This document shows, piece by piece, positions 41,182 through 57,293 of a stretch of DNA of 64,000 nucleotides (the stretch's first letter is position 1; each line of letters begins with the position of its first letter). The stretch comes from a virus. The translations under genes and the position numbers were made by a program. The notes beneath the pieces were generated by a model. That model did no database searches and was not told the origin of the DNA. It worked only from the letters and a program-made list of their open reading frames with translations. Where the stretch lies: positions 54,180-118,179 of IMG/VR virus record IMGVR_UViG_3300031616_000001; one strand, written 5' to 3'.

Positions 41182-44100
41182 ATGACGGGTATCACCTATC
41201 GCTCAGATCAGACGCGCAACCTCAGCGCGTCGGAGGTCGACGGCAACTTTCTGCAGCTGACGCAGAACAAGGTCGAGACTTCGGTCTACAGCGCGCTCGC
41301 GGCTGCCGTGCTCGGCCTGGCCGCGATCAGCGCGATCGCCGCCGGCACGACAGATCTGACGGCCGGCACGCTGTCATTCGGAAATTCCAACGGCGTGACC
41401 TTCGGGCTCAACGGCGCCACGCTGACGGCCTCGGTGCGCACCGACTACCTCACCACGGCCGCGCTCAGCGGCCATTCGCACGGCAACCCGACGCTCGCCC
41501 TCACGAACCTCAGCGGCAGCACGGCGTCAAACAGCGCGGGCCTCACGCTGTCGCTATCGGCGGCCGCGCCCGGCGCCGGCGCGGGGATCTCGGCGGCCGG
41601 CTCGTCGCAGAGCAACGGCACGATCGTCTTCTCGAACAGCAATGGGCTGTCGTTCGGCATGAACGGCAGCACTGTCACCGGATCGCACAACGGCCTCACC
41701 ACCGCCGCGCAGTCGAACCACTCGCACGGCAACCCTACCCTGGCGCTGACGAACCTCAGCGGATCGACGGCTTCAAACAGCGCCGGCCTGACGATCAGCT
41801 TGTCGGCGGCGCCGCCAGACGGCATCGGGATATCGGCCGCCGCCGGCTCACAGACGGCCTCGAGCGGCACGATCAATTTCGCGAACTCGAATGGCCTGAC
41901 GTTCGGGATGTCCGGCAGCTCGCAGATCACTGGCAGCTACACGGTTCCCGAGACATCGGCCTTCCTGACGACGGCCGCATTGTCGAATCACAGCCACGGC
42001 AACCCGACGTTGGCGCTCACGAACCTGTCGGGATCGACGGCCAGCAATTCGGCGGGCCTGACGCTGAGTCTCAGCGCGGCCGCGCCGGCGGCCGGCGTGG
42101 CCATCTCGGCGGCCGGATCCTCGGTCAGCGCCGGCACGCTGGTCTTCTCGAACAGCAACGGCATCTCGTTCGGATTGAGCGCGTCGACGATCACGGCGAG
42201 CTACACCGTCCCCAACACGGCGGGCCTGTTGTCGGCGATCAACCTGTCAGCCGGTACCACCTCGCAGAACGTCTCGGCGCTGACGTTCGAAAATGCCAAT
42301 GGCCTCAGCTTCGGCCTCGCGGGTTCGGTGGTCACCGCCAGCTATTCGGTACCCAGCCAGACCGGGCTCGTGCCGTACACCGGCGCCACCGCCGATCTGA
42401 ACCTCGGCGCGCACTGGCTGAGCCAGGTGCGCGGGCTCGCCTTCGATGTCGGCGACCTGACGGCTCCGGCCCACGCCGAAGGCCAGCTCGGCTACGACCT
42501 CAAGAACTTGTGCATGACGCTGGACATGTACGGTGGCGCGCGGCTGCAGATTGGGCAAGAGCTCTACATCATTGTTTACAACGATTCGGGTTCCGACATC
42601 GGCGACGGCCAGGTCGTCTATCAGAATGCGTCGGCGCGAATCGAATACGTGTCCGGCAAGTTCGGCGACTACCCGACCGTCCGCTTGGCGCAGGCAAACT
42701 CGGTTCTGACGTCAGACGCACTCGGCGTCTCGACCACGTTGATCCCGAACGGCGGCTTTGGCTTCGTGACGGCATTCGGCCTGGTCAACACGCTCGACAC
42801 GTCGGCATGGGCTGCCGGCGACCAGCTCTATCTGTCGGAAGCCACGCCGGGCGAGATGACCAACGTGTCGCCGACGACGCCGAACCGGTCGGTGCTCATC
42901 GCCCGCGTGATCCGCTCGCACGCCACGGCCGGCAACATCATGCTCGGCCTGCAGCAGTTCGCGAACTTCGCGGACCACCTTGATGTCGCCATCGCGTCGC
43001 CGTCGAACGGTGACGTCGTCCAGTACAACGGAGCGGTTTCGAAGTGGGAGAACATGGCCCTGCCGGCCGTGTCGGCGATCAACATCAGCGCCGGGTCCAC
43101 ATCGAACAACGCCAGCGCCTTCGTATTCTCGAACGGCAACAACATCAGCTTCGGGCTGAACGGCTCGACGATCACGGCCTCAGCGGCGCAATCGGTGCAG
43201 ACGCAGTCGAACGTCCAAGGCATCAGCGCTGGCACGCAGGTCGCGCGCACCGGAGACATCGTCTTCGCGAACTCGAATGGCATGACGTTCGGGCTGAGTG
43301 GCAGCAGCCAACTGACGGCGAGCTACTCGGTGCCGTCCACTGCCGGCCTGCTGTCGGCCATCAATCTCAGCGCGGGCACGACGTCACAGAACTTGTCGGC
43401 CCTGACGTTCTCCAACCAAAACGGCGTGACCTTCGGCTTGGCGGGCTCGGTGATCACGGCCAGCATCGCCGCCGTGGCCGGCGCGCAGACCGGTATCAGC
43501 GGCATCGCGAATAGCGAGACGACGTTCTCCAGCGGCACCGTCGGGTTCTCGGAGCTCGGCGCGATCACGATCCGCAGCACGACTGGCAACCAGCTGCAGT
43601 TCAGCGTGGCGCCGCAGAGCAACCAGGCGATCGGCCTCTACGCGTCGTCGCAGACGTTCGGGCAGTCCTCCAGCAGCGGCTTCGATGCGCGCAGCCTGAG
43701 TTTCGTCGGCTCCGGCGGCATCTCGATCGGGCTTAGCGCTGGCTCGATCCTGATCAGCGGCCTGACAACGGCAGCCCAGACCAACCAGAGCGTCGGCCTG
43801 TATGCGACCGGCAACACGACGCAGAACAGCTCGACGACGCTTGACGCGAGGTCGCTGTCGTTCAACGGCCTCGGCGCCGCCACGGTTGGCTTCAGCAACG
43901 GCTCGATCCAGATCAGTGCGCCGGTGCAGACCGCGCAGACGCAGAGCAACGTCCAGGGAATCATCGTCTCGAACACGACGTACCGCACAGGCGACGTCTC
44001 GTTCAGCAACGCCAACGGCATCAGTTTCGGATCGAGCGCCGGCCAGGCGATCACGGCGAGCTATACCGTTCCCGGCGCGACGGTCTTCAGCAATTCGAAC

Positions 44101-46695
44101 AACGTCACCTTCGGGTTGAACGGTTCGACCGTGACAGCCACGGCCAGCTTCGCGCAGAGCGCACAGACCATAGGCTTGTACGGGTCTTCGCAAACGTACG
44201 GCCAGTCGTCGAGTTCAACGGTCGACGCGCGCAGCCTCAGCATCGTGGGGTCGGGCGGCGTCTCCGTGGGCATGTCGGCAGGATCCCTGCTGATCAGCGG
44301 TCAGACAACGGCTGCTCAAACGGCGCAGTCGATCGGCCTGTATGCGTCATCGCAGACCTTTGGCCAGAGCTCCAGCTCAACGATTGACGCCAGAAGCCTG
44401 AGCGTTGTCGGCTCCGGCGGCGTGTCGATTGGAATGAGCGCCGGTTCCCTGCTCATCTCCGGCCAGACGACCGTCGCGCAAAGCGTTCAGACGCAGAGCA
44501 CGGTCGCGATCAACGGGTCCACCGGCGCCATCAGCTTCGCGAACTCGAACGGCATCACGTTCGGCTTCAACGCGAGCACCGTGACGGCCAGTCACAACGG
44601 CCTCACGAGCCAGACTGTCCAGACGCAGTCGAACGTGCAGGGCATCAGCGCCGGCACGCAGGTCGGACGCACGGGCGATATCGTCTTCAGCAACTCCAAC
44701 GGGATCTCCTTCGGGTTGTCGGGGTCGAACACGCTGACGGCGAGCTACACGGTGCCAGGCGCGACGGTGTTCTCGAACTCGAACAACGTGAGCTTCGGGC
44801 TCAACGGTTCGACGGTGACGGCCACCGCGACGTTTGCCCAGACCGCGCAGACCATGGGACTCTACGGGTCCTCTCAGACGTATGGGCAGAGTTCGTCGAG
44901 CACCATCGACGCCCGCAGTTTGAGCGTGGTCGGATCTGGTGGCGTCTCGGTCGGCATGAGCGCGGGATCGTTGCTGATCAGCGGCCAGACCACGGTCGCA
45001 CAGTCAGCGCAGACGCAATCCAACGTCCAGGGGATCGTGGTTTCCAACACCACGTACCGGACCGGCGACGTCTCGTTCTCGAACCTGAACGGCATCAGCT
45101 TCGGCTCGAACGGCGCCAACGTCGTCACCGCCTCGTACACGGTACCGACGCAGTCGGCGCAGACGATCGGCCTGTACGCCTCGAGCCAGACCGTCGGGCA
45201 GAGCTCGTCGAGTACGGTCGACGCGAGATCGCTGACCATCGTCGGCATGGGCGGCGTGTCGGCAGGGATGTCGGCGGGCTCGCTGATCATCAGCGGCGGC
45301 GCGGCTGGCGCGGGCGGCGTGGCGATGTCGGCGGGCACGCAGTCGGTGAGCACTGGCACGATGGTGTTCTCGAACTCGAACGGCGTCACCTTCGGGATGT
45401 CCGGCTCGAGCCAGATCACGGCCAGCCACAACGGCTTGACGACGCAATCAAACCAGGTCGTCAGCGCATTCGCGGCATCGAACACCACGCAGAGCACGGC
45501 GGGCACGTTCAACGCATCGTCGATGATCATCGCCGGCGCCGGTGTCGTATCGGTCGGCGTGAGCAATGGATCGATCGTGATCAGCGCGCCAGCTGCTGCG
45601 GCGTCACCGGTCAACTTCAGTGCGGGTACCACGTCGGGAAATCTCGGGTCGGTTGTCTTCAGCAATGCCAACGGTGTGTCCTTCGGCCTCAATGGGTCAA
45701 CGGTGACGGCCAGCGCGGCTGGCGGCGGCATCGGACTCGGCAACAGCCAGACCACCTACACGTCCGGCAATGCGATCATGAGCGTGGTCGGCGGAGCGAT
45801 GACCATCGCATCGACGACAGGGCAGAGCTTCAATTTCTCGGTTCCGCAGACATCGTCGCTGGTCGGTGCATCGGGGATTCTGGTCAGCACAAACGGCAGC
45901 ACGATCAGCATCTATCAGCCGCTCGTCAGCTACTTCGCGAACGGCTTGCCATACCTGATGAACAGCCAGACGCAGACGGTCCAGCAAAGCACCTCTGTCA
46001 TGTTCCCGATGCAGGTGCGAGAGGCATTCTCGGCGGGCTACATGCGCATGGCGCACACCGTAAGCCTGGCATCCACGTCATTCGCATCGACCGCCAATAG
46101 CGCGTACAGCTACAACCAGCAAGAGACCCACAACGTCGTTCTCTACAGTCTGGGGACCGGCGCGAGTTCGATGAGCTTGCGGTCATTCTCATCGAGTTCC
46201 GTCAGTTTCCGGTACTCGATCAATGTCAGCCAGAACACGACGAACAACATCAGCGTCACTCATGGCCTCACATACCCAGTGAGCAACGGTACATCCTCGC
46301 TGAGCTTCAGCTATGCGGCGACGAACAGCACGATGCAGGTCAGCACGACGCACATGACTGCGTTGAGCGGGATGAAGTTGTGGGACACACAATTCGCGGC
46401 ATCCGTTCCGACAGGCCGCTTGTTCATGGCCTACGGGCAGTCCACGACGCAGACGACGCAAGGCACGGCGGCATTGAGCGCTTGCCGGATTCTGCACAGT
46501 CAAATCGGCATGTCGCAACCGAACAATACATTGGGCTTTTTTGGCTCCGCGAACAACGCATCGATCCAATTCCAACAGGGCATCGGCTCATTCTCTGTCG
46601 CCGGCGGCGGCACAAGCGCCAGCCTAAACCTGTCGCAGGTCAGCTCGTCGGCATCGCACGTTGTCCCATACATCCAGTTCGTGAACCAAGCTTAA
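41182..46695 (+). CDS. Giant repetitive fibre protein (1837 aa)
   Basis: ATG 41182, four bases after the collagen-like gene. It holds 16 copies of a repeat of type FSNSNGVSFGLNGSTVTAS and about seven copies of a second type with DARSLSFVGSGGISIG and SAGSLLISG. The two are interleaved with ISAGTTSQN-type segments, all Ser/Gly/Thr-rich and beta-strand-like. A different domain near 400-600 (YDLKNLCMTLDMYGGARLQI, IVYNDSGSDIGDGQVVYQ) and a unique C-terminus follow. Looks like a long beta-solenoid or trimeric fibre for host recognition. Repeat number could vary by recombination. Confidence 0.8.
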   Translation: MTGITYRSDQTRNLSASEVDGNFLQLTQNKVETSVYSALAAAVLGLAAISAIAAGTTDLTAGTLSFGNSNGVTFGLNGATLTASVRTDYLTTAALSGHSHGNPTLALTNLSGSTASNSAGLTLSLSAAAPGAGAGISAAGSSQSNGTIVFSNSNGLSFGMNGSTVTGSHNGLTTAAQSNHSHGNPTLALTNLSGSTASNSAGLTISLSAAPPDGIGISAAAGSQTASSGTINFANSNGLTFGMSGSSQITGSYTVPETSAFLTTAALSNHSHGNPTLALTNLSGSTASNSAGLTLSLSAAAPAAGVAISAAGSSVSAGTLVFSNSNGISFGLSASTITASYTVPNTAGLLSAINLSAGTTSQNVSALTFENANGLSFGLAGSVVTASYSVPSQTGLVPYTGATADLNLGAHWLSQVRGLAFDVGDLTAPAHAEGQLGYDLKNLCMTLDMYGGARLQIGQELYIIVYNDSGSDIGDGQVVYQNASARIEYVSGKFGDYPTVRLAQANSVLTSDALGVSTTLIPNGGFGFVTAFGLVNTLDTSAWAAGDQLYLSEATPGEMTNVSPTTPNRSVLIARVIRSHATAGNIMLGLQQFANFADHLDVAIASPSNGDVVQYNGAVSKWENMALPAVSAINISAGSTSNNASAFVFSNGNNISFGLNGSTITASAAQSVQTQSNVQGISAGTQVARTGDIVFANSNGMTFGLSGSSQLTASYSVPSTAGLLSAINLSAGTTSQNLSALTFSNQNGVTFGLAGSVITASIAAVAGAQTGISGIANSETTFSSGTVGFSELGAITIRSTTGNQLQFSVAPQSNQAIGLYASSQTFGQSSSSGFDARSLSFVGSGGISIGLSAGSILISGLTTAAQTNQSVGLYATGNTTQNSSTTLDARSLSFNGLGAATVGFSNGSIQISAPVQTAQTQSNVQGIIVSNTTYRTGDVSFSNANGISFGSSAGQAITASYTVPGATVFSNSNNVTFGLNGSTVTATASFAQSAQTIGLYGSSQTYGQSSSSTVDARSLSIVGSGGVSVGMSAGSLLISGQTTAAQTAQSIGLYASSQTFGQSSSSTIDARSLSVVGSGGVSIGMSAGSLLISGQTTVAQSVQTQSTVAINGSTGAISFANSNGITFGFNASTVTASHNGLTSQTVQTQSNVQGISAGTQVGRTGDIVFSNSNGISFGLSGSNTLTASYTVPGATVFSNSNNVSFGLNGSTVTATATFAQTAQTMGLYGSSQTYGQSSSSTIDARSLSVVGSGGVSVGMSAGSLLISGQTTVAQSAQTQSNVQGIVVSNTTYRTGDVSFSNLNGISFGSNGANVVTASYTVPTQSAQTIGLYASSQTVGQSSSSTVDARSLTIVGMGGVSAGMSAGSLIISGGAAGAGGVAMSAGTQSVSTGTMVFSNSNGVTFGMSGSSQITASHNGLTTQSNQVVSAFAASNTTQSTAGTFNASSMIIAGAGVVSVGVSNGSIVISAPAAAASPVNFSAGTTSGNLGSVVFSNANGVSFGLNGSTVTASAAGGGIGLGNSQTTYTSGNAIMSVVGGAMTIASTTGQSFNFSVPQTSSLVGASGILVSTNGSTISIYQPLVSYFANGLPYLMNSQTQTVQQSTSVMFPMQVREAFSAGYMRMAHTVSLASTSFASTANSAYSYNQQETHNVVLYSLGTGASSMSLRSFSSSSVSFRYSINVSQNTTNNISVTHGLTYPVSNGTSSLSFSYAATNSTMQVSTTHMTALSGMKLWDTQFAASVPTGRLFMAYGQSTTQTTQGTAALSACRILHSQIGMSQPNNTLGFFGSANNASIQFQQGIGSFSVAGGGTSASLNLSQVSSSASHVVPYIQFVNQA

Positions 46696-46705
46696 GCCAG
46701 CAGCC

Positions 46706-48313
46706 ATGGCGACGTCACTACCACAAAGCGCGCACCTCATCGCGCAATGGTCGGCAGACTCGCTCACTCCGCAGACCGACAACACCGACGTCACTGCAAC
46801 ATGGACGGATAGCGTCAACGGGTACGGCGCCACCTGGTCTACAACAGGTCAAGGCGGCCGCCCATCGGTAGCCCCGAAGTACCGCACCAACACGACGGGT
46901 GGGAAGCCGTCAGTGCGATTCCAGGCCTCTGGCAATGGCTCGAGCATGTTGATGGGCCGACCGGCGACGGTTGTCGCCGCGCTGAATGCGCAGGCCGTGA
47001 CGACCTTCGTCGTCTACAAGACGATCACGCCATCCGGCAACGGCGGCTGCTTGGTCGACTTGGGTATCGACGACACCGGCAACTTCATGCTGGCGGACGG
47101 CAACCAAGTCGGCAGCTTCGCCGACAGCTTCATGAAGGTGCCGAACACCGCGCAGTCGGCGTTCTCTACCTTGGCGACGTCTATCGGGTCGTACACGAAT
47201 GGCACGGGCACGTTCCCGCTCGAGCGGTGGCATGTCGACGGTGGTTGCGTCGGCCACGCCAGTTCGGCATCTGCCGGCCCGGGCGCGACAGTGTCGCTTT
47301 GCATCGGCGCGAACGCGAACAACGGCGCGTTCATCAACTGCGAAGCCGACATCTACGAGATCCTGTTCTGGGACCAAGCGCTCACGCCGACCGAGGTCAT
47401 GCAGGCGCACATGTGGGCCTGCGAGAAGTACGGTCAGTCCTATCCGTGGGCATCGCGTGATCACATGCTGGTCTTCGACGGCGATTCGATCACGATGGGT
47501 CTCGGCGGCTCCAGCCCAGCCGACTCGTATCCATACAAGGTCGCGCAGACGCTGGGCCTGTCGTTCGGCCAGTGGACGAACCTGGGGATCGGTGGCGACA
47601 CGATCACCGAGATGGACACGCGTGCGCCAGCTGGTGTCGACGACGTCTACGCGCTGATCGGCAAGCCCGTCAAGCTGGCGGCATTCGAGTGGTACAACCA
47701 GCGCGCTGCCAGCCCGACGCCGCGAAACAACTCGCTGACGTACCTGTCGAATCGGCGGTCATCGACGGTGAAGGTGTGCTTCGGCACGTCGACCGACACG
47801 AGTGCGACGACCGACACGGATCGCGCGGACTACAACACCTACTTCGACGCAAATAACACGTCGGCGACGATGGACGCCTACGTGGCGATCCACGCCGACG
47901 CGAACATCGGCGTCGAGACGGCGGCGGCGAACTTCCCCGGCAACTTTGCCGACGGAGTCCATCTGTCGGCGGCCGGCTATACGATCCTCGCCGGTCTGAT
48001 GGTCACGGGTGTGAACGCCCTGGTCTTTGCCCCGACGATCAACACGCAGCCGGCGAATCTGTCCGTCTACGAGAACGCTCTCGCGAACTTCACGATCGCC
48101 GCCACGGCGAGCTCGGGGACGAACAGCTACCAGTGGAAGAAGAACGGCGTGAACGTCGGCACCGACAGCACGACGCTGTCGTTCACAGCCGCCCTTTCTG
48201 ACAACGCTGCGCTGATCACATGCGACGTCACCGACGACAACGGCACAGTGACGAGCTCCACGGCAACGCTGACAGTCATACCGTCTTCGATCGTGGCATG
48301 GATGGTCGCGTGA
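46706..48313 (+). CDS. SGNH/GDSL hydrolase with lectin-like and Ig-like domains
   Basis: ATG 46706; 535 aa. Residues 1-240 resemble a concanavalin-like (LamG) fold ending ADIYEILFWDQALTPTEVMQ. About 250-435 is an SGNH hydrolase: FDGDSITMG with the catalytic Ser in block I, NLGIGGDTI as block II and DGVHLSAAGY with the Asp/His pair near 415. The last 90 residues are Ig-like (PTINTQPANLSVYENA, SYQWKKNGVNVGTDSTTL). Probably a virion esterase removing acetyl groups from surface polysaccharide. Confidence 0.82.
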   Translation: MATSLPQSAHLIAQWSADSLTPQTDNTDVTATWTDSVNGYGATWSTTGQGGRPSVAPKYRTNTTGGKPSVRFQASGNGSSMLMGRPATVVAALNAQAVTTFVVYKTITPSGNGGCLVDLGIDDTGNFMLADGNQVGSFADSFMKVPNTAQSAFSTLATSIGSYTNGTGTFPLERWHVDGGCVGHASSASAGPGATVSLCIGANANNGAFINCEADIYEILFWDQALTPTEVMQAHMWACEKYGQSYPWASRDHMLVFDGDSITMGLGGSSPADSYPYKVAQTLGLSFGQWTNLGIGGDTITEMDTRAPAGVDDVYALIGKPVKLAAFEWYNQRAASPTPRNNSLTYLSNRRSSTVKVCFGTSTDTSATTDTDRADYNTYFDANNTSATMDAYVAIHADANIGVETAAANFPGNFADGVHLSAAGYTILAGLMVTGVNALVFAPTINTQPANLSVYENALANFTIAATASSGTNSYQWKKNGVNVGTDSTTLSFTAALSDNAALITCDVTDDNGTVTSSTATLTVIPSSIVAWMVA

Positions 48314-48334: not shown

Positions 48335-48362
48335 TGGACAGCGACTTTAGCATTGCTAGAAT
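48335..48362 (+). promoter_or_regulatory. Putative sigma70 promoter before the glycosylation genes
   Basis: TGGACA (48335-48340), 16-base spacer, TAGAAT (48357-48362) with an extended TGC. The spacer contains CTTTAGCATTGCT (48345-48357), identical over 13 bases to the motif at the leftward-operon promoter (32854-32866). Confidence 0.65.
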
Positions 48363-48398: not shown

Positions 48399-49133
48399 TT
48401 GAGTCCGCAGATTGTTTTGCCCGACTATGGCCGGCACAACGCCGACATCGAGGCCACGATCAAACGTGTCGACGATTCCTCGGCGTGGAAGAAACTCGAC
48501 ACGATCATGCTGATTCCAGCCGGCAAGTCGGTGCCGCTGAAGACGGCGTTGAGTTGGTTGAACATGTACGCGCCGCCGAACAACCAGTTCTTCCGGCTGC
48601 CCGCCGCGGCGAGCATCAACATGGAGGTCGGCGAGGCCTTCAGCCATTTGATCGAGCAGATCCTCGCGCATCCGCAACTCTCGCTGTTCAAGTACATCCT
48701 GACCTGCGAGCACGACAACATCGTGCCGCCAGACGGCTTGATCAAACTGCAGCAGCGGATGGAGGCCAACCCGGACTTCGACTGCATCAGCGGCCTGTAC
48801 TACACCAAGGGCGACGGTGGCATGCCGCAGATCTGGGGCGACCCGCGCGACCCTGTGAACAACTTCCGGCCGCAGCCGCCGCGCACCGGCGAGCTCGTTG
48901 AGTGCTGCGGTACCGGCATGGGGTTCGCGCTGTGGCGGCTCGAGATGTTCAAGGATGCAGACCTGCGCCGGCCCTGGTTCAAGACGCAGACCGAAGGCGG
49001 CGTGAGCACGCAGGACTTGTACTTCTGGGCCGACGCTCGCAAGAACGGCTATCGCTGTGGCGTTGATTGCTCGGTCCTTGTTGGACATTACGACATGGAC
49101 GGCAAGTTCGGTCCTGAAGACTACACCTGGTGA
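48399..49133 (+). CDS. Glycosyltransferase, GT2-like
   Basis: TTG 48399 with AGGAG (48386-48390) upstream; 244 aa. GT-A style: LDTIMLIPAGKSVPLKTALS, then FKYILTCEHDNIVPPDGLIK with a metal-binding HDN near residue 106, and VECCGTGMGFALWRLEMF. A similar type occurs in other phages with sugar-modifying genes. Donor and acceptor are unknown. Confidence 0.75.
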   Translation: MSPQIVLPDYGRHNADIEATIKRVDDSSAWKKLDTIMLIPAGKSVPLKTALSWLNMYAPPNNQFFRLPAAASINMEVGEAFSHLIEQILAHPQLSLFKYILTCEHDNIVPPDGLIKLQQRMEANPDFDCISGLYYTKGDGGMPQIWGDPRDPVNNFRPQPPRTGELVECCGTGMGFALWRLEMFKDADLRRPWFKTQTEGGVSTQDLYFWADARKNGYRCGVDCSVLVGHYDMDGKFGPEDYTW

Positions 49134-49146
49134 TCTCGGAGAAACG

Positions 49147-49812
49147 ATGAAGAACAAGGCCGCGCGAGCCCCTGAACTGCAACCTATCGGAGCAGTGGTT
49201 GTCATACCGCTGCGCCTTGACTTCGGCTGCGGCCGAACGAAGTTGGATGGTTGGGAAGGCATCGACTCCATCGACTTCGGCCAGAAGCATGTTCTGAACA
49301 TCGCCGAGCAGAGCAAGGCCTGGTACCGGCAGAACCACGAATTCATGACAGGCGATCGCGAGACGCCACCCGATGTGCCGCGCTACCTGGCGTGGCCTTT
49401 CGCTGATGGCAGCGTCGACGAGGTTCGCTCCTCGCACTTCGTCGAGCATCTCACCGGCGAGCAACGCGTGTTCTTCTTCAGCGAGCTGTACCGCGTGATG
49501 AAGGTCGGCGCCACCGCGCAGATCGTCACGCCGAACTGGTCGCACTCCTGCGCCTACGGTGATCCGACGCACCAGTGGCCGCCGATGAGCAGCTGGTTCA
49601 CGCTCTACCTCAATGAGCAATGGCGCGCCGTGAATGCGCCACACGCCGGTTTCGCGTGCGACTTCGACTGGGGCATCGCCGGCGGCTGGGATGCATCGAT
49701 CGAGATGCGCAACGCCGAGACCAAGGCGGTGATGATGGACAAGAACACCAACTGCTTCCGGGACCTGATAGCGACGCTTACCAAGCGGCCGCCGAGCGCG
49801 CCAGCGCCTTGA
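49147..49812 (+). CDS. SAM-dependent methyltransferase 1
   Basis: ATG 49147 after GGAGAAACG; 221 aa. Motif I RLDFGCGRTKLDGWEGIDS, acidic YLAWPFADGSVDEVRSSHFV, and post-II HLTGEQRVFFFSELYRVMKV: the layout of type 11 methyltransferases found in glycan gene sets. Probably methylates a sugar or lipid-linked glycan. Confidence 0.8.
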   Translation: MKNKAARAPELQPIGAVVVIPLRLDFGCGRTKLDGWEGIDSIDFGQKHVLNIAEQSKAWYRQNHEFMTGDRETPPDVPRYLAWPFADGSVDEVRSSHFVEHLTGEQRVFFFSELYRVMKVGATAQIVTPNWSHSCAYGDPTHQWPPMSSWFTLYLNEQWRAVNAPHAGFACDFDWGIAGGWDASIEMRNAETKAVMMDKNTNCFRDLIATLTKRPPSAPAP

Positions 49813-49831
49813 TCCGGAACGACCAACACCA

Positions 49832-49854
49832 GGCCCGCTACACGCGGGCCTTTT
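49832..49854 (+). terminator. Intrinsic terminator
   Basis: GGCCCGC (49832-49838), loop TACAC, GCGGGCC (49844-49850), TTTT. It lies between the methyltransferase and the second collagen-like gene, 16 bases before its start. Confidence 0.8.
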
Positions 49855-49870
49855 CAATTCAGGACCACGC

Positions 49871-51985
49871 ATGACGAGCAAAGTCTCAGAATTTGCTGAC
49901 GCGCTCTTCGTGGCCGTCAAGGGCTATTGCTCGTCGGAGTTCAAGCGCCTGTTCGAGCCGGCGATCGCCCCGCTGAAGGATCAGATCAGCGCCATCCCGG
50001 CCGGCCGCGACGGCAAAGACGCGGATCTCGAGCTCGTACGCACGGCTGCCGCCGATGCCGCGCGCCAGGCGGTCGCCGAACTGCCGCCGGCCAAGGACGG
50101 TGTAGATGGTCGCAGCGCCGACCCAGAAGAGGTTTCCACTCTCGTGCAGGAGACAGTGGCGAAAGCCATCGCGCTGATCCCCGTGCCGAAAGACGGCCGC
50201 GACGCTTCGATCGAAGACGTCACGTCAGTTGTCGACGCAGCGCTGTCCAAGGCAGTCGAAAGTCTGCCGCTCCCGAAGGACGGCCGCGACGCTGAGCCCG
50301 TCGCCCCCGAGGTGGTGCGCGCGATGGTTGCGGAAGCCATCGCCAAACTGCCGGCGCCAAAGGATGGGGTCGACGGCAAGAGTGCTGATCCCGTTGAAGT
50401 TGAAGCCGCGGTGCGCAAGGCCATCGATGAGTTGCCGCCGGCGAAGGACGGCGCCGACGGCAAGGACGCCGACGCCGAGGCCATCACGCAGGCCGTGCTC
50501 GCCAAGATCGCAGCGTTTCTTGACGGCATCCCGGCGCCGGTCAACGGCAAAGACGGCCGTGACGGCGTCGACGGCGCCAGCGTCGATTCCGCGGTAGTCG
50601 CACGGCTCGTCTCCGAAGAGGTGAAGCGCGCCGTCGACGCGCTACCGGCGCCGAAGGACGGCGTCGACGGCAAGGATGGCGTGGCCGGTGCCGACGGGCC
50701 GTCGACGGAAGAGATCGCAGGTCTGGTGCGGTCGGCAGTCGCGACGATCCCGCCGCCGAAGGACGGTGTCGACGGCAAGGACGCGAGTCCCGAGCAGATC
50801 TCGGAAGCCGTGGCCAAGGCCGTGGCGCTGATCCCGGTTCCGAAGGACGGCCGCGATGGCGTCGACGGGCAGTCGGTCGACCGCCAGGTCGTGCGCGGCA
50901 TGGTCGACGATGAGGTCGCGAAGTCGGTCGCCGCGCTACCGCCGGCAAAGGACGGCGTCGACGGTAAGAGCATCGATCCCGTCGAGCTCGAAACGCTGGT
51001 CGTGGCGAAGGTGAAGGCGGTTGTCGCTGATCTGCCGAAGCCTGAAAACGGCGTCGATGGGCGCGATGCCGACCCTGAAGTGCTTCGACAGATGGTGTCC
51101 GACGCCGTGGCCGAGATCCCGAAGCCGGCGGATGGCCGCGACGGGAAGGATGGCCTGGACGGCAAGTCCGTCGATCGCGATGAAGTAGTCGAACTCGTGC
51201 GCGCGGCCACGGCGGGCGTGCCTGAGCTGGTCGAGTCGGTTGTCGAGACGGCGGTCGCGAAGATCCCGGCTGCGAAGGATGGCCGCGACGGCGTTGACGG
51301 CAAGAGCGTCGACGAGCAAACCATCGCCAGGCTGCTTGGCGACCTCGTGGCCAAGGCCATGGAGGCCATGCCGAAACCGCGTGACGGCCGCGATGCCGAT
51401 CCCGAGTCGATCCACAAAGCCATCGAGGCCGCGATCAACTCGATCCCTCTGCCAGTTGACGGCCGCGACGGTCGTGATGGCAAGGTCGGCGATCCCGGTC
51501 GCGACGCGCTGCAGATCGAGGTCCTGCCGGCCGTCGATGTCACGCGCAGCTATCCGCGCGCCACGTATGCGAATTACCGCGGCGGCGTGGTGCGCTCGGT
51601 GCGCACGACCGACCCCGTCACCGACTCGATCGAGGCCGCCGGTTGGGTCGTGCACGTCGACGGCGAGGCCGACTTCGAGATCGAGCAGGTCAATGAGCGA
51701 TCGTTCGCTTTCAAGCGCACGTTCACCAGTGGCCGCGTGGTTGAGAAACGCGTGAGCATCCCCGCACAGATCTACCGCGGCGTCTACGACGAGAACCGCG
51801 TTGGTGGCTACGAAAAGGGCGACACCGCGACATGGGCAGGGTCGCTCTGGCATTGCAATGAACCCACGGGCGAGAAGCCCGGTGTCGGCGGCAACTGGAC
51901 GCTTGCCGCCAAGCGCGGCCGCGATGGTGCCGACGGCGTCGCGCCGCGCGCCGGCCCGCCGCCGACGGTCAAGTTGCCGAAGTGA
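49871..51985 (+). CDS. Collagen-like virion protein 2, modular (704 aa)
   Basis: ATG 49871. About a dozen units of roughly 45 residues, each with a short collagen piece (KDGVDGKSADP type) plus a helical piece (LVRSAVATIPPP type). The C-terminal 150 residues include YRGVYDENRVGGYEKGDTAT and WAGSLWHCNEPTGEKPG, like a carbohydrate-binding (chitin-binding type) module. Likely a trimeric tail fibre with a sugar-binding tip. Confidence 0.78.
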   Translation: MTSKVSEFADALFVAVKGYCSSEFKRLFEPAIAPLKDQISAIPAGRDGKDADLELVRTAAADAARQAVAELPPAKDGVDGRSADPEEVSTLVQETVAKAIALIPVPKDGRDASIEDVTSVVDAALSKAVESLPLPKDGRDAEPVAPEVVRAMVAEAIAKLPAPKDGVDGKSADPVEVEAAVRKAIDELPPAKDGADGKDADAEAITQAVLAKIAAFLDGIPAPVNGKDGRDGVDGASVDSAVVARLVSEEVKRAVDALPAPKDGVDGKDGVAGADGPSTEEIAGLVRSAVATIPPPKDGVDGKDASPEQISEAVAKAVALIPVPKDGRDGVDGQSVDRQVVRGMVDDEVAKSVAALPPAKDGVDGKSIDPVELETLVVAKVKAVVADLPKPENGVDGRDADPEVLRQMVSDAVAEIPKPADGRDGKDGLDGKSVDRDEVVELVRAATAGVPELVESVVETAVAKIPAAKDGRDGVDGKSVDEQTIARLLGDLVAKAMEAMPKPRDGRDADPESIHKAIEAAINSIPLPVDGRDGRDGKVGDPGRDALQIEVLPAVDVTRSYPRATYANYRGGVVRSVRTTDPVTDSIEAAGWVVHVDGEADFEIEQVNERSFAFKRTFTSGRVVEKRVSIPAQIYRGVYDENRVGGYEKGDTATWAGSLWHCNEPTGEKPGVGGNWTLAAKRGRDGADGVAPRAGPPPTVKLPK

Positions 51986-52623
51986 GCGCGGTACTGGAGC
52001 GGCCAGTCGTGCGCTGGGATGGCATCCGATGGGATGACGCGACCGTCGTGATCCTGGCCAGCGGGCCCAGCTTGACCGAGGCGCAGTGCGCAGCGGTGAA
52101 GGCTTGGCGTGATGCCGGCGAAGCACGGCGCGTCATCGCGATCAACACGACGTTCCGGCGCGCGCCGTGGGCTGACGTGCTGTACGCCTGCGACGCGCAG
52201 TGGTGGATCGCGTTTCGCAAGGAAGTCGATATGGCGTTCGCCGGCGAGCGGTGGACGCAAGATGAGTTGGCCGTCGTGTACGGCGTGCGGCGCATCGCGA
52301 GCGTGCGCGGCAAAGGATTGAGCCGGACGCCAGGCGTCATCCATCAGGGCGGCAACAGCGGGTACCAGGCGATCAACCTCGCGTGGCAGGCCGGCGCCGC
52401 GCGGATCCTGCTACTCGGCTTCGACATGCAGGGCACGCACTGGCATGGCCGCTATGGGAACGGCCTGGCCAACACCGCTGCTCACTTGTTCGAGCAATGG
52501 CTGGTCGAGTTCAAACCGCTCGCCGCCGATCTCAAGACCGAAGGCATCGACGTCGTGAACTGCACGCCGGGCGGCCGGTTGGAATGTTTCCCGCGCGCCG
52601 CGCTTTCCGAGGAATTGACTTGA
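51982..52623 (+). CDS. DUF115-like / glycan-associated protein (213 aa)
   Basis: GTG 51982 overlaps the previous stop. Contains VVILASGPSLTEAQCAAVKA, the GPSL signature of DUF115-like (6-hydroxymethylpterin pyrophosphokinase-like fold) proteins, then RVIAINTTFRRAPWADVLYA and ILLLGFDMQGTHWHGRYG. These proteins are frequent in glycosylation gene sets. Exact activity unknown. Confidence 0.65.
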   Translation: MSAVLERPVVRWDGIRWDDATVVILASGPSLTEAQCAAVKAWRDAGEARRVIAINTTFRRAPWADVLYACDAQWWIAFRKEVDMAFAGERWTQDELAVVYGVRRIASVRGKGLSRTPGVIHQGGNSGYQAINLAWQAGAARILLLGFDMQGTHWHGRYGNGLANTAAHLFEQWLVEFKPLAADLKTEGIDVVNCTPGGRLECFPRAALSEELT

Positions 52624-53414
52624 TCGCAGTGAACACCATCCGCGCGGAGCCTCACTATCGGCGCGCGGCATTCGACGCCGGCCTCGAGAAGGTCGGCTAC
52701 CAACTTAGGAACGGCGGGGATCCGCAGAACCGCGACGACGTGATCCTGCTGTGGAACCTGCACGGCGCCAACGAGCAGCGGGCTCGCGAGTGGGAAGCCA
52801 AAGGCGGAACCGTGCTGGTCTGCGAGAACGGCTACATCGGGCGTGACGCGGCTGGTCAGCAGCTCTACGCGATCGCCGTGCACGGCCACAACGGCAGCGG
52901 CTGGTTTCCGGTTGGTGCCGAAGATCGGTTCGAAACCCTCGGCATCCAGCTCGCGCCGTGGCGCGCCGGCGGCGCCGGCATCCTGATCTGCGGACAGCGA
53001 GGCATCGGCTCGCGCCAGATGGCCAGCCCGGCGCAGTGGGAGGACAAGACGCTGCGGCGATTCAAGGAGCAGAAGCTCACCGGTGTCCGTATCCGGCGGC
53101 ACCCCGGCAAGAACGCAACGGCGACGCCGCTCGAGCAGGACCTCGCCGATGCCGGTCTCTGCGTCATCTGGAGTTCGGCCTCCGGCGTGAAGGCGCTGAC
53201 GATGGGCATCCCCGTCGTCTACTGCGCGCCGCACTGGATCTGCGCCGGCGCGGCTGGCCACAGCATCGGCACGATCCACGAACCCGTGTGTGACGACGCG
53301 CGCCGGCTCGCGGCCCTGCGGCGCATGGCGCATGCGCAGTGGCGCGTTGCCGAGATAGAGCAGGGCGAACCCTTCCGGCGGATCCTCGACAGCATCGGGA
53401 GCGCTACGTGGTGA
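52620..53414 (+). CDS. Phage glycosyltransferase-like protein A (264 aa)
   Basis: TTG 52620 overlaps the previous stop. Contains LGIQLAPWRAGGAGILICGQ, VRIRRHPGKNATATPLEQDL and CVIWSSASGVKALTMGIPVV. The last resembles the C-terminal nucleotide-sugar-binding half of GT-B enzymes. It is paralogous to the next gene. Confidence 0.6.
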   Translation: MIAVNTIRAEPHYRRAAFDAGLEKVGYQLRNGGDPQNRDDVILLWNLHGANEQRAREWEAKGGTVLVCENGYIGRDAAGQQLYAIAVHGHNGSGWFPVGAEDRFETLGIQLAPWRAGGAGILICGQRGIGSRQMASPAQWEDKTLRRFKEQKLTGVRIRRHPGKNATATPLEQDLADAGLCVIWSSASGVKALTMGIPVVYCAPHWICAGAAGHSIGTIHEPVCDDARRLAALRRMAHAQWRVAEIEQGEPFRRILDSIGSATW

Positions 53415-54154
53415 ACGTGACCGCCTACCCATGTGCTGGCAAGCGGAAGTCCTTCGAGATCTGCCTGGCCTTCGTCAGAGGCTGCGGCGGCCAGATCGGC
53501 ACGACGCTGCGCGACGGCGCCGCGGCTTTCTATGGCGTCGACGAGTCGAACGTCGACGTGTGGCGCGCGGTGCGCGCGCGCGGCTCCGACTACTACTACA
53601 TCGACAACTCCTATTTCGATTCCGCGCGGCAGCAGCATTTCCGCGTGACGAAGAACAGGCTGCAGCACCCCGGCATCGGTGTCAGCGATGGCTCGCGGTT
53701 CCGCGCGCTCGGCATCAGTCTCGCGCCGTGGCGCGCCGGCGGTGCGCACATCGTCGTCTGCCCGCAGTCGAACGCGTTCATGCGGACAGCTGCCGGCTAC
53801 GACGGCGACTGGACGCAGAAGACGCTGGCGCGCCTCAAGGCACAGACGACGCGGGAGATCCGCGTGCGCGAGTGGTCGGCGAACAAGGGCGCACTCGCTG
53901 CAACCCTGCAGCAGGACCTGGCCGGCGCGCACGCGCTGGTCACATGGTCGTCAGCGGCGGCCGTCTCGGCTGTCGTGTCGGGGGTCCCGGTGATCGTCGA
54001 GGCCAACGACTGCGCGGCGCGATTCATGGGCGGCACCGACATCGAGGCGCTGCCGACACCGGAGCGCGAAAACTGGGTCGGCACGCTCGCCGACAACGAA
54101 TGGTCACTGGACGAAATGTCAAAGGGGAAAGCATGGCTGAAGCTGCAAAAGTGA
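53411..54154 (+). CDS. Phage glycosyltransferase-like protein B (247 aa)
   Basis: GTG 53411 overlaps the previous stop. Aligns with its neighbour at LGISLAPWRAGGAHIVVCPQ and ALVTWSSAAAVSAVVSGVPV, but the N-terminal part differs (YYYIDNSYFDSARQQHFRV). A tandem duplication with divergence, suggesting two related sugars or acceptors. Confidence 0.6.
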   Translation: MNVTAYPCAGKRKSFEICLAFVRGCGGQIGTTLRDGAAAFYGVDESNVDVWRAVRARGSDYYYIDNSYFDSARQQHFRVTKNRLQHPGIGVSDGSRFRALGISLAPWRAGGAHIVVCPQSNAFMRTAAGYDGDWTQKTLARLKAQTTREIRVREWSANKGALAATLQQDLAGAHALVTWSSAAAVSAVVSGVPVIVEANDCAARFMGGTDIEALPTPERENWVGTLADNEWSLDEMSKGKAWLKLQK

Positions 54155-55074
54155 AGGACCTGAAGGGTTGGTTCACCGGATTGGGCCGCGATGGCGACCG
54201 TTCGCTGGAGCAGCAGATGACGGGGCTCGAGGCCTTGGTCGCCGAGGTCCCCGGCAAGACCGTGCTCGATGCCGGCTGCGCCGAGGGCCTCATCGCCCTC
54301 GAGCTCGCCGCCGTCGGCGCCAAGGCGTGCATCGGTCTGGAGATCGTCGGCAAGTTCGTGGCCATCGGCGAGCGACTCGCCGGCGAGCGCGAGTTGCCAT
54401 GCGAGTTCATCGTCGCCAACCTGAACCAGTACGACCTGAGCGACAAGCCGCAGGTAGACATCGTGCTGATGCTGGCCATCCTGCACAAGCTGCGCGACCC
54501 GTCGGCCGTCTGCGCCGCGCTCGCCGCGCTGGCGCGCGACCTCTGCGTGATCCGCCTGCCGCCTTCGGGCATGCGCATCCTGGACCTTCGATCCGGCATG
54601 CGGCCGCACCACATCGACCAGGTGATGACCGACGCCGGATTCGCTCTGGAGTCCGTGGTCGCCGGTCCGTACGACGAATGGCTCGGCTACTTCCGCCGCG
54701 TTCAGGCCGACAAGCCGGTCGAGCTCGAATCGGAACCCGTCGAGACGATCGCATCGACGTCCATGACGAATGTCGTCATCGGTGAGACGAACGTCGAGGT
54801 TTCCGACACGAAAGCGCCATCCCATGCAACGGAAGGCGAAGTCCATGCAACAAGCGAGGCCGGCGATGCGTCGAACGCACCTGCCGATGCATCCGGAACC
54901 TCATCGGTCGAAGATGCTCAGGCCGTCGCCGAAGGCGGCGCTGCCGAGATCGTTGACGCGGCCAAGCCGGACGACAAGCTCGAGAATGTGGCGGTGATGG
55001 CCACGGATTCCGCCGACGCAACTGGAGCGCGGCGCCGCCGCAATCGCGGCGGATCGAAGGGCTCCGGGGAGTAG
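54133..55074 (+). CDS. SAM-dependent methyltransferase 2 with disordered tail
   Basis: ATG 54133, overlapping the previous gene; 313 aa. Residues 30-200: motif I TVLDAGCAEGLIALELAAVG and IVLMLAILHKLRDPSAVCAA. The last 100 residues are low-complexity Ala/Glu/Asp/Ser ending in a basic RRRRNRGGSKGSGE, so the enzyme probably has a flexible tail. Confidence 0.75.
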   Translation: MAEAAKVKDLKGWFTGLGRDGDRSLEQQMTGLEALVAEVPGKTVLDAGCAEGLIALELAAVGAKACIGLEIVGKFVAIGERLAGERELPCEFIVANLNQYDLSDKPQVDIVLMLAILHKLRDPSAVCAALAALARDLCVIRLPPSGMRILDLRSGMRPHHIDQVMTDAGFALESVVAGPYDEWLGYFRRVQADKPVELESEPVETIASTSMTNVVIGETNVEVSDTKAPSHATEGEVHATSEAGDASNAPADASGTSSVEDAQAVAEGGAAEIVDAAKPDDKLENVAVMATDSADATGARRRRNRGGSKGSGE

Positions 55075-55098
55075 ATCATCGGTGCCGGTGATTGGCTG

Positions 55099-55818
55099 AT
55101 GGCCACTGCTCAGGCCAGGCAGCTGCACGAGTCGAACGGCCGGCCGGTGTTGATCGTGGGCCGCTTCAATCGGCCGCAGTGGCACGAGGTCTTCGAGAAC
55201 AACCCGCGCATCGTGCGCATGCCAACCAGTGGCGCACAGCGCCTGGCGAATGGCAGCGGTATGCGGCCGTACATCGTAAGCAAGACCGCGACGCGATGGA
55301 CGTGGAAGCACTGGGACATTGCACCCGGCGAGATCTACCTCACGGACGCCGAGAAGCAGTTCGGCATCGCGCACGGCGGCCGTGTCCTGATCGAACCCAA
55401 CACCAAGGTCGACGGTTCGAACAAGGCATGGATCGCTGAGCGCTGGCAGGAGCTCGTCGACCGCGGAGGCGACTTCGTCCAGGTCGGCCCGGCCGGCACC
55501 TGGGCTTTGCGCGGCGTCGAGTTCGTCGAGACCAAGACATTCAGGCTGGCCTGCGCGGTGCTGGCGGCGAGCCGGGCATTCGTTGGCACCGAGGGCGGCC
55601 TGCATCACGCGGCCGCCGCGCTCGGCGTGCCGGCGGTGGTGCTCTACAGCGAATTCATCTCGCCGGAGATCACGGGCTATGCCGGCCATCGCAACCTGCG
55701 CCACGCCGGCGAGGCCTGCGGCTCGCGTGTGCCGTGCGCTGGCTGCCGCGCGTCAATGGAAAAGATCACTGTGGACGAAGTGTCCGAGAACCTGGAGCAG
55801 ATCCTTGAAGTACGTTGA
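55099..55818 (+). CDS. Glycosyltransferase family 9-like
   Basis: ATG 55099; 239 aa. Contains FVGTEGGLHHAAAALGVPAV, which matches the heptosyltransferase donor-binding motif, and GRVLIEPNTKVDGSNKAWIA. Family 9 enzymes transfer heptose in LPS core synthesis. A phage form could alter host LPS or a virion glycan. Short compared with about 320-350 residues, so the N-terminal half is reduced. Confidence 0.75.
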   Translation: MATAQARQLHESNGRPVLIVGRFNRPQWHEVFENNPRIVRMPTSGAQRLANGSGMRPYIVSKTATRWTWKHWDIAPGEIYLTDAEKQFGIAHGGRVLIEPNTKVDGSNKAWIAERWQELVDRGGDFVQVGPAGTWALRGVEFVETKTFRLACAVLAASRAFVGTEGGLHHAAAALGVPAVVLYSEFISPEITGYAGHRNLRHAGEACGSRVPCAGCRASMEKITVDEVSENLEQILEVR

Positions 55819-56455
55819 CTCGTGGTGGTTTCCGGACGGCGAGAGCCACCTTCCTGGATGGATGGCGAACCCGAAGGTACGCATGGCCTTGAACGGTCGG
55901 CCAGCCTACCAAGGCGGGAAGCAGAAGGCTGCCATGGAGGTTTGCACGCAGTTCCGCACGGCGGTTGATGTCGGCGGTCACGTCGGCCTGTGGAGCTTCA
56001 ACCTCGCGCACGCCTTCGACCAGGTGCATGCCTTCGAGCCTGTCGCCGTGCATCGCGAGTGCTTCACGCGCAACACCGAGGGCCTGGCCAACATCGAGCT
56101 CCACGACTGCGCGCTCGGCGATCGCTACGGCAGCGTGAAGATCCGAACCGAGCCAACGAGCAGCGGCGATTCGCGCGTCGACGGTGCCGGCGACATCCCG
56201 ATGCACACGCTGGACAGCTTCCACCTCGAGAACGTCGATCTGGTCAAGATCGACTGCGAGGGCTTCGAGCTGTTCGTGCTGCGCGGTGCCGAGGAGCTGC
56301 TGGCGCGCCAGAAACCAGTCGTCATCGTCGAGCAGAAGCCCGGCCACGCCGTGAAGTTCGGCCTCGGCGATCGCGATGCGCTGCCGTACCTCGAGTCGCT
56401 CGGCTACCGCCTGGCGCGCGAGATGGCGGGCGACCTGATCATGGTGCCGGCATGA
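55805..56455 (+). CDS. FkbM family methyltransferase
   Basis: TTG 55805 overlapping the previous end; 216 aa. TAVDVGGHVGLWSFNLAHAF with HAFEPVAVHRECFTRN, and VDLVKIDCEGFELFVLRGAE are FkbM signatures. The family O-methylates sugars and polyketides. The TTG start is inferred from coupling. Confidence 0.85.
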   Translation: MKYVDSWWFPDGESHLPGWMANPKVRMALNGRPAYQGGKQKAAMEVCTQFRTAVDVGGHVGLWSFNLAHAFDQVHAFEPVAVHRECFTRNTEGLANIELHDCALGDRYGSVKIRTEPTSSGDSRVDGAGDIPMHTLDSFHLENVDLVKIDCEGFELFVLRGAEELLARQKPVVIVEQKPGHAVKFGLGDRDALPYLESLGYRLAREMAGDLIMVPA

Positions 56456-56610
56456 GATTCAAGCGGCGGGCGAAAGCGCAGGATCCGTGGAATCGATGGT
56501 TCGCGTGGCATCCCGTCTTCTGCGAGTTCGACAAGTGCTGGGTTTGGCTTGAGATGGTCGACCGTTGCTGGGACAACGATCTCGAGCGCTGGCAATACGA
56601 GACCGACTGA
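56452..56610 (+). CDS. Small Trp-rich protein (52 aa)
   Basis: ATGA-coupled upstream; the stop shares a base with the next ATG. Rich in Trp (WNRWFAWHPVFCEFDKCWVW). No family recognised. Coupling supports a real gene. Confidence 0.5.
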   Translation: MRFKRRAKAQDPWNRWFAWHPVFCEFDKCWVWLEMVDRCWDNDLERWQYETD

Positions 56611-57293
56611 TGAAGGTCTACATCGGTCACGACACCCGCGAGCAACCGGCCGTCGACGTGGCGTTGCGCACGCTCCTGAAGGTCAGCGGCATCGAAGCCG
56701 AACTGCTGTGCGCTGACCGGCTGCGCGACGCCGGCATGCTGTCGCGCATCAGCGATCACCGCGGCGGCCAGTCGTACGACCTGGTGAGCAACGCACCGAA
56801 ATCGACGTCGTTCGCTGTCTCGCGCTTCCTGACGCCACTGCTCTGCCAGGGCGGCTGGGCACTGTTCGCCGACTGCGACGTCGTGTTCGCCCGCGACCCG
56901 CACGAGATGCTGGCAGAGATCGAGCCCGGCAAGGCGGTCTACGTGGTCAAGCATGAGTACCTGCCGGCCGGCGACACCAAGATGGTCGACCAGGTGCAGA
57001 CGGTCTACCCACGCAAGAACTGGTCGAGCGTGATGCTGTTCGACGTCGACCATCCGGCAAACCGCCGGCTCTCGCTGCACGACATCAACACCCGGCCGGG
57101 CCGCGACCTGCACCGGATGTACTGGCTCAACGACCACGAGATCGGTGAGTTGGACCCGGCCTGGAACTGGCTCGTCGACTGCCAGGCGCGGCCGGCGAAT
57201 CTCGGCATCGCCCATATGACTCTCGGCGGCCCCTGGCTGCCCGGTTGGCAGGGCGGCTCATTCGATGCCGAGTGGCAGAAGGAAGCACCATGA
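56610..57293 (+). CDS. Glycosyltransferase family 8-like
   Basis: ATG 56610; 227 aa. Start MKVYIGHDTREQPAVDVALR is typical of phage-type GT8 proteins, and the metal-binding DxD is DCD at residues 88-90 (WALFADCDVVFARDP). Also SSVMLFDVDHPANRRLSLHD. Transfers a hexose from a nucleotide sugar. Its end overlaps the head-tail connector gene. Confidence 0.8.
   Translation: MKVYIGHDTREQPAVDVALRTLLKVSGIEAELLCADRLRDAGMLSRISDHRGGQSYDLVSNAPKSTSFAVSRFLTPLLCQGGWALFADCDVVFARDPHEMLAEIEPGKAVYVVKHEYLPAGDTKMVDQVQTVYPRKNWSSVMLFDVDHPANRRLSLHDINTRPGRDLHRMYWLNDHEIGELDPAWNWLVDCQARPANLGIAHMTLGGPWLPGWQGGSFDAEWQKEAP

What the first reader, a model, noticed from the sequence alone, without database searches (positions are those of the whole stretch)
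48399..57293. Glycosylation and methylation gene set placed inside the morphogenesis operon
Five glycosyltransferase-like proteins (GT2-, GT9-, GT8-like and a tandem pair), a DUF115-like protein and three methyltransferases (one FkbM) lie between the portal/fibre genes and the head-tail connector. Portal and connector genes, usually close together, are over 17 kb apart. With the collagen-like fibre in their midst, these genes may decorate virion fibres with methylated sugars, or remodel the host surface.
Basis: partly seen in the sequence, partly recalled or inferred. Interest (0 to 1): 0.74.

Follow-up and report, generated by a model that had tools for sequence, protein, structure and literature searches.

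The report
Mobile phage sugar-building gene cassette
Between its head genes and its head-to-tail connector genes, this uncultured phage carries a run of sugar-transferring and methyl-transferring enzymes; seven of them recur in the same order in unrelated phages, so they probably build one methylated sugar chain, most likely on the virus particle itself, though nobody has shown the target.

Summary
Between portal (38718-40448) and head-tail adaptor Ad1 (57290-57895) lie six proteins with glycosyltransferase folds or motifs, three methyltransferases and a collagen-like fibre. The DUF115 protein is itself glycosyltransferase-like: its model best matches the Maf flagellin glycosyltransferase (Z 16.2). 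The tandem pair has the fold of retaining beta-Kdo transferases (KpsC/WbbB, Z 12.6), but the catalytic Asp is replaced by Gly in the first copy.

Seven genes (D-E-F-G-H-I-J, 51982-57293) form a unit. A scan with E alone found 68 phage loci; DEFGHIJ is the commonest order. The unit occurs in at least three unrelated backbones: siphophages (mostly between head and connector genes), giant Caulobacter phages (after tail proteins) and podovirus-like phages (after replication genes). It is therefore a mobile pathway, not tied to morphogenesis. The A-B pair (48399-49812) is a separate addition.

Best explanation (0.55): it assembles an O-methylated glycan on a virion protein. Collagen fibres are not the evident target; no enrichment was found. 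Host-surface change stays open. DNA modification is unlikely. Precedents: Corndog, Che8, D3/P1 PmgO.

The parts
38718..40448 (+). Portal protein (upstream landmark)
   Evidence: PF04860, 267 bits
40438..41178 (+). Collagen-like protein 1, adjoining the portal
   Evidence: 22 GxxGxxG matches; translation
41182..46695 (+). 1837-aa Ser/Thr/Asn-rich repeat fibre; candidate glycan acceptor
   Evidence: S+T 28.7%, K 0.3%; FGLxGSxxTAS-type repeats
46706..48313 (+). GDSL-esterase-like protein with Ig-like domain
   Evidence: PF13472 and Ig_3, both below cut-off; PHROG 3995 tail protein
48335..48362 (+). Promoter-like site ahead of A (weak evidence)
   Evidence: TGGACA-16-TAGAAT; number found is no more than in shuffles; not found in L190
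48399..49133 (+). A: GT2-like glycosyltransferase
   Evidence: PF00535 15.4 bits, below cut-off; relatives L190 and L187, 69% and 58% identical
49147..49812 (+). B: SAM-dependent methyltransferase
   Evidence: PF08241 just over cut-off; PHROG 6636
49831..49851 (+). Terminator-like hairpin between B and C (weak evidence)
   Evidence: 8-bp stem, 7 G-C pairs, TTTC tail; total number of such sites is within shuffles; not conserved in L190
49871..51985 (+). C: collagen-like fibre whose C-terminal domain is fused to the portal in some relatives
   Evidence: PHROG 1289/2271; fused ORFs in L078 and L083
51982..52623 (+). D: DUF115/PmgO family, Maf/GT42-like fold, putative glycosyltransferase
   Evidence: PHROG 4603, 158 bits; AlphaFold pLDDT 93.1; VIA Z 16.2 to Maf 5mu5, 12.4 to CstII
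52620..53414 (+). E: KpsC/WbbB-fold glycosyltransferase, first of the tandem pair
   Evidence: AlphaFold pLDDT 94.6; Foldseek E 6.5e-7 to KpsC; VIA Z 12.6; RRHP present, nucleophile Asp absent
53411..54154 (+). F: paralogue of E with altered HP motif
   Evidence: Alignments A1 and A3
54133..55074 (+). G: SAM-dependent methyltransferase with long C-terminal tail
   Evidence: PF13649 37.6 bits over cut-off; start revised
55099..55818 (+). H: GT9 (heptosyltransferase-type) glycosyltransferase
   Evidence: PF01075 33.9 bits over cut-off; TIGR02193 E 9e-8, below cut-off
55805..56455 (+). I: FkbM-family methyltransferase (start uncertain, 55805 or 55862)
   Evidence: PF05050 60 bits, TIGR01444 85.3 bits, both over cut-off; start codons
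56610..57293 (+). J: GT8-like glycosyltransferase (start at 56565 or 56610)
   Evidence: PHROG 28018, 145 bits; 3 of 7 family members match PF01501
57290..57895 (+). Head-tail adaptor Ad1 (downstream landmark, overlaps J by 4 bases)
   Evidence: PHROG 442/40, PF05135 over cut-off; junction

Best explanation
Genes D to J are a horizontally mobile, co-inherited pathway that builds a short O-methylated glycan from the host's nucleotide sugars and attaches it to a phage virion protein in the cytoplasm before or during assembly. Shown: the gene content, the conserved order across unrelated phages, the predicted folds of D and E, the family membership of G, H and I, and the lack of clear membrane segments. 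Inferred: D (Maf-like) or J starts the chain on protein Ser/Thr; E/F, H and J extend it; I, G and (from the separate A-B pair) B cap it by methylation. The acceptor is unknown: head, connector or tail proteins and the Ser/Thr-rich 1837-aa fibre are the leading candidates. The likely benefit is shielding or altered adsorption; the enzymes are expected to be dispensable in the laboratory.
For: Among 68 loci found with E alone, 49 of 53 with at least 3 kb upstream carry D, and of 45 with at least 6 kb downstream 41 carry J and 43 a second E/F gene; DEFGHIJ is the commonest order string, 14 loci. Pairwise identities of the seven proteins rise and fall together (Spearman 0.43-0.80 over 18 gene sets, a few of them near-duplicates). 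CcrColossus has D-E-F-J-MT-GT9 directly after tail proteins. C/D, D/E, E/F and J/Ad1 overlap by 4 bases. In 19 of 30 loci with at least 7 kb on both sides, head genes lie upstream. D homologues are P1 PmgO, P7 HdmB and D3 orf7, mostly in morphogenesis regions; PmgO, PmgP and PmgQ of P1 are nonessential (PMC10695390), as a modification would be. D's best structural match is the flagellin glycosyltransferase Maf. Precedent: Corndog GT/O-methyltransferase genes between portal and protease (PMC4351075); glycans on capsid and tail tube of mycobacteriophages, read here only as cited in PMC12619734 and PMC11256854.
Against: No virion glycan was observed. Six podovirus-like loci keep the cassette away from recognised structural genes, in those looked at behind DNA polymerase and helicase genes. 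No association with the collagen gene and no Ser/Thr-rich C-terminal tails on capsid or portal of cassette carriers. KpsC and heptosyltransferases, the nearest characterised relatives of E and H, normally act on lipid-linked acceptors.
Confidence: 0.55

Rival explanations
1. The enzymes remodel the host surface: they add Kdo/heptose-type and methylated sugars to LPS or another glycolipid on the cytoplasmic face, blocking superinfection or preventing progeny from sticking to debris.
For: E has the fold of LPS/capsule beta-Kdo transferases and H belongs to the heptosyltransferase family, both normally acting on lipid-linked acceptors; in podovirus-like phages the cassette follows replication genes, compatible with action before assembly.
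Against: No clear membrane protein or flippase in the cassette; in the window it is coupled to the collagen-like and connector genes; D resembles a protein glycosyltransferase more than a lipid one.
Confidence: 0.25
2. The enzymes glycosylate modified bases in the phage DNA.
For: Phage glycosyltransferases that hypermodify DNA are known; in podovirus-like phages the cassette follows DNA polymerase and helicase; the own genome has a C5-cytosine methylase.
Against: No TET/JBP oxygenase and no thymidylate synthase/hydroxymethylase family gene in the own 118-kb record, so no hydroxylated base to carry a sugar was found; FkbM, GT9 and Maf-like folds fit protein or glycan acceptors better.
Confidence: 0.06
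3. The collagen-like fibre C is the specific acceptor, by analogy with collagen hydroxylysine glycosylation (a narrower form of the best explanation).
For: C lies directly upstream of D, overlaps it by 4 bases, and the same collagen-D neighbourhood recurs in many siphophage loci.
Against: No enrichment of D with the collagen gene; no 2OG-Fe(II) hydroxylase of PF13640 in the own record; D3, S20 and other carriers have MCP, not a collagen gene, near D; S+T only 8.4%.
Confidence: 0.1

Closest known systems
Mycobacteriophage Corndog (cluster O) GT/O-methyltransferase genes gp35-gp38 (PMC4351075)
   Same: Glycosyl- and methyltransferase genes between portal and other head genes; the authors propose capsid modification
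   Different: Three GTs and one MT; tblastn with A, E and J found no mycobacteriophage relatives; the Corndog genes lie between portal and protease
Mycobacteriophage virion glycosylation (Che8 and relatives; Freeman 2023, as cited in PMC11256854 and PMC12619734)
   Same: Phage-encoded glycosyltransferases; glycans shown on capsid and tail tube
   Different: Different host group; GT genes near the genome end in Maravista; here no virion chemistry is known
Caulobacter phage CcrColossus gp126-gp131
   Same: Related D, E, F, J, a methyltransferase and GT9, directly after tail proteins
   Different: Giant phage with another backbone; order D-E-F-J-MT-GT9; no function assigned
Phage P1 PmgO, P7 HdmB, D3 orf7, PAJU2 ORF010
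   Same: Same family as D, mostly in morphogenesis regions
   Different: Small sets, about 30-40% identity to D; P1 pmgO, pmgP and pmgQ are dispensable (PMC10695390)
Maf flagellin glycosyltransferase (PDB 5mu5)
   Same: D model superimposes on its central domain, Z 16.2, 2.6 A over 173 residues
   Different: D is 213 aa, without the flanking regions of the 632-residue Maf chain; 14% identity; donor and acceptor unknown
Retaining beta-Kdo transferases KpsC (GT107), WbbB (GT99), KrkA (GT140)
   Same: Fold of E (Z 12.6), RRHP motif, invariant Trp45/Glu69 with the same 24-residue spacing as KpsC Trp42/Glu66, and Gln126 of QXXXD
   Different: The nucleophile Asp is Gly130, invariant in the eight aligned orthologues

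Membership tests
Retaining beta-Kdo glycosyltransferases (GT99/GT107/GT140), for E | Overall fold | tested here: met
   Foldseek E 6.5e-7, prob 1.00; VIA Z 12.6 over 227 residues against 8.3 for the next unrelated group
Retaining beta-Kdo glycosyltransferases (GT99/GT107/GT140), for E | QXXXD motif with Asp nucleophile (PMC10148158, PMC12887879) | tested here: not met
   QRGIG in E and all eight aligned orthologues; a more distant member in L045 reads QVPTD
Retaining beta-Kdo glycosyltransferases (GT99/GT107/GT140), for E | (K/R)XHP motif for CMP | tested here: met
   RRHP in E, His161/Pro162 invariant in orthologues; lost in F
Retaining beta-Kdo glycosyltransferases (GT99/GT107/GT140), for E | Use of CMP-Kdo | not testable with these tools
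   Needs enzymology
Maf / DUF115 (PF01973), for D | Fold of the Maf central domain | tested here: met
   VIA Z 16.2 to 5mu5
Maf / DUF115 (PF01973), for D | Pfam model over its gathering score | tested here: not met
   23.1 bits against a cut-off of 34.6; strong match to PHROG 4603 instead. D is therefore called Maf-like, not a Maf
Maf / DUF115 (PF01973), for D | Transfer of a nonulosonate to protein Ser/Thr | not testable with these tools
   Needs enzymology
GT9 heptosyltransferase family, for H | PF01075 over cut-off | tested here: met
   33.9 bits against 22
FkbM methyltransferases, for I | PF05050 and TIGR01444 over cut-off | tested here: met
   60 against 22.7 bits; 85.3 against 37.7 bits
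GT8, for J | PF01501 match | tested here: inconclusive
   Window J has none; 3 of 7 family members do, best E 4.9e-9
GT2, for A | PF00535 over cut-off | tested here: inconclusive
   15.4 against 23.3 bits; its relative is annotated 'has synthase'
Phage virion-glycosylation loci (Corndog/Che8 kind) | GT and MT genes among head genes | tested here: met
   Gene map
Phage virion-glycosylation loci (Corndog/Che8 kind) | Glycan covalently on virion protein | not testable with these tools
   Needs mass spectrometry
DNA-hypermodification loci | Enzyme making a hydroxylated acceptor base (TET/JBP, hydroxymethylase) | tested here: not met
   No PF12851 or PF00303 match at E <= 1 in the own record
Membrane-bound O-antigen conversion cassettes (GtrABC type; features from general knowledge) | Multi-span membrane GT and flippase | tested here: not met
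   Highest 19-residue hydropathy of A, B and D-J is 0.80-1.74, G highest, with no multi-span protein evident; a crude test

The most novel reading that the evidence does not exclude
Phages of several unrelated lineages share a pathway that builds an LPS-inner-core-like glycan, with Kdo- or other nonulosonate- and heptose-type residues capped by methyl groups and drawn from the host's CMP-sugar and ADP-heptose pools, on a virion protein; and E is a KpsC-fold transferase that works without the Asp nucleophile, hence by a different mechanism (for example single-step inversion). In keeping, one relative (L015) carries a gene between H and I with a weak, below-cut-off match to Kdo hydroxylase.
Probability: 0.18. 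Interest if true: 0.8.

Novelty: new variant of a known kind. Interest (0 to 1): 0.55.

Why it matters
From what could be read here, virion glycosylation in phages has been demonstrated mainly in mycobacteriophages. A seven-gene, order-conserved cassette that moves between siphophages, podovirus-like phages and giant Caulobacter phages suggests that phages of Gram-negative hosts have their own, widely shared glycan pathway. It gives concrete genes (E/F, without a Pfam match or a functional PHROG name) and culturable carriers (CcrColossus; D-type genes in D3 and P1) in which the puzzle of 'morphogenetic' glycosyltransferase-like genes can be tested. The missing nucleophile in E is a direct question for glycosyltransferase mechanism.

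Tried and rejected
Megablast of the region against phage records: no match. Ser/Thr-rich C-terminal tails of capsid, tail tube or portal as a mark of cassette carriers: no difference for capsid and portal; too few tail tubes without the cassette. Co-occurrence of D with the collagen gene: none. Collagen hydroxylation (PF13640) and DNA hypermodification enzymes (PF12851, PF00303): not found in the own record. A-B as a promoter/terminator-flanked 'moron': suggestive sites at 48335 and 49831, but numbers are within shuffles and nothing similar was found in L190, so not claimed. E/F in bacterial genomes: 87 pattern hits, none confirmed; only one degenerate pattern was usable, so bacterial homologues are not excluded. 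A first alignment of E/F was too divergent to search with. The key paper on virion glycosylation (PMC10527164) is not in the library; it is known here only through citing papers.
Full report
What was checked. The window is the end of a 118-kb IMG/VR record. Its tape-measure gene begins at the window's end and its remainder stands at the start of the record, so the record appears to be a circularly permuted genome. The morphogenesis run is TerL, protease-capsid fusion, portal, collagen-like protein, 1837-aa fibre, GDSL/Ig protein, the sugar and methyl genes, then Ad1, Hc1, neck, tail tube and tape measure.

Anatomy. GC3 frame plots give ten genes between 48399 and 57293: A GT2-like; B methyltransferase; C collagen-like fibre; D DUF115-like; E and F a tandem pair; G methyltransferase; H GT9; I FkbM; J GT8-like. 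C/D, D/E, E/F and J/Ad1 overlap by exactly 4 bases, so D-E-F follow on from the fibre and J leads into the connector. A and B stand apart: they have gaps on both sides and are missing next to the cassette in L105. L190 repeats the whole arrangement from fibre and GDSL through A, B, C and D-J to tape measure. A pair like A-B also lies in the region after the capsid gene in uncultured podoviruses from Manatee Spring.

Folds. D (AlphaFold pLDDT 93.1) superimposes on the Maf flagellin glycosyltransferase with Z 16.2 and on CstII sialyltransferase with Z 12.4. It also resembles an archaeal HPPK (Z 12.1), so the fold alone does not prove glycosyl transfer. E (pLDDT 94.6) matches only the retaining beta-Kdo transferases clearly: Z 12.6, against 8.3 for the next group. 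Their defining motifs are QXXXD, whose Asp is the nucleophile, and (K/R)XHP, which binds CMP (PMC10148158, PMC12887879). E keeps RRHP, the Gln, a Trp and the Glu that aligns with KpsC's general base Glu66, but has Gly where the nucleophile should be, in all eight aligned orthologues. E is therefore not filed as a Kdo transferase. F has also lost the HP motif.

The unit. A viral-contig scan with E-type sequences alone gave 68 loci with E. Of 53 with at least 3 kb upstream, 49 carry D; of 45 with at least 6 kb downstream, 41 carry J and 43 a second E/F gene. The commonest order is D-E-F-G-H-I-J (14 loci), then D-E-E-J (9). Identities of the seven proteins between gene sets are correlated. Several loci are near-duplicates, so these counts are not independent events.

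Where it sits. Of 30 loci with at least 7 kb on both sides, 19 have head genes upstream and 11 form a clean head / cassette / connector slot. Two of the others are Caulobacter giant phages; in the related CcrColossus the cassette follows tail proteins. Six are podovirus-like: where scanned, DNA polymerase and helicase lie upstream, and endolysin and DNA-ejection genes on the other strand downstream. Seven such records scanned for the window's TerL gave no match, although fragments may lack the gene. Portal-only sampling shows D is accessory: 15 of 44 relatives with enough flank.

Target. The common factor is not the collagen gene, not a capsid tail sequence, and not DNA-base hydroxylation. The most Ser/Thr-rich neighbour is the 1837-aa fibre (28.7%), but L105 shows no such fibre in the sequence available. 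Published work favours virion proteins in general: Corndog carries GT and O-methyltransferase genes in the head operon, and their products were found in infected cells but not in purified virions (PMC4351075); mycobacteriophage capsid and tail tube carry glycans (cited in PMC12619734); glycoproteins were detected in XacN1 (PMC5852040). In P1 the D homologue PmgO and its neighbours PmgP and PmgQ are dispensable (PMC10695390).

Conclusion. The unit is a mobile glycan pathway; modification of the virion is the best-supported role, host-surface change the main rival. It is a new variant of a known kind, with one mechanistic surprise in E. The acceptor, the sugars and the purpose are inferred, not shown.

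Noticed in passing
L101:2578-3162 (own record, next to the tape-measure gene): A further GT2-family protein (PF00535 over cut-off) directly follows the tape-measure gene, so the phage's sugar genes are not confined to the reported cluster.
   Followed up: partly
window 61738-63999 and L101:1-2574: Tape-measure gene split across the record's ends: the record appears circularly permuted.
   Followed up: partly
window 58739-59386: GIY-YIG homing endonuclease between neck and tail genes; also present in L105.
   Followed up: partly
L015:9997-10734: Extra gene between H and I with a weak, below-cut-off match to Kdo hydroxylase (E 0.0029).
   Followed up: no
L078:1361-3466 and L083:9977-12091: Portal ORFs that also match the collagen-like protein C, suggesting C is a portal-associated fibre.
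   Followed up: partly
L034 and L037: D, J, H, G and F homologues lie between capsid and portal genes, a rearranged cassette.
   Followed up: partly
L015:4931-5416, L015:6207-6746, L202:6362-6901: Proteins that look like homing endonucleases lie within or near the cassette in relatives; judged by eye from translations only.
   Followed up: no
window 41182-46695: Very large fibre with many FGLxGSxxTAS-type repeats and almost no lysine; a homologue follows the portal and collagen-like genes in L050.
   Followed up: partly
window 60260-60336: A tRNA-Met(CAT) gene within the tail gene run.
   Followed up: no
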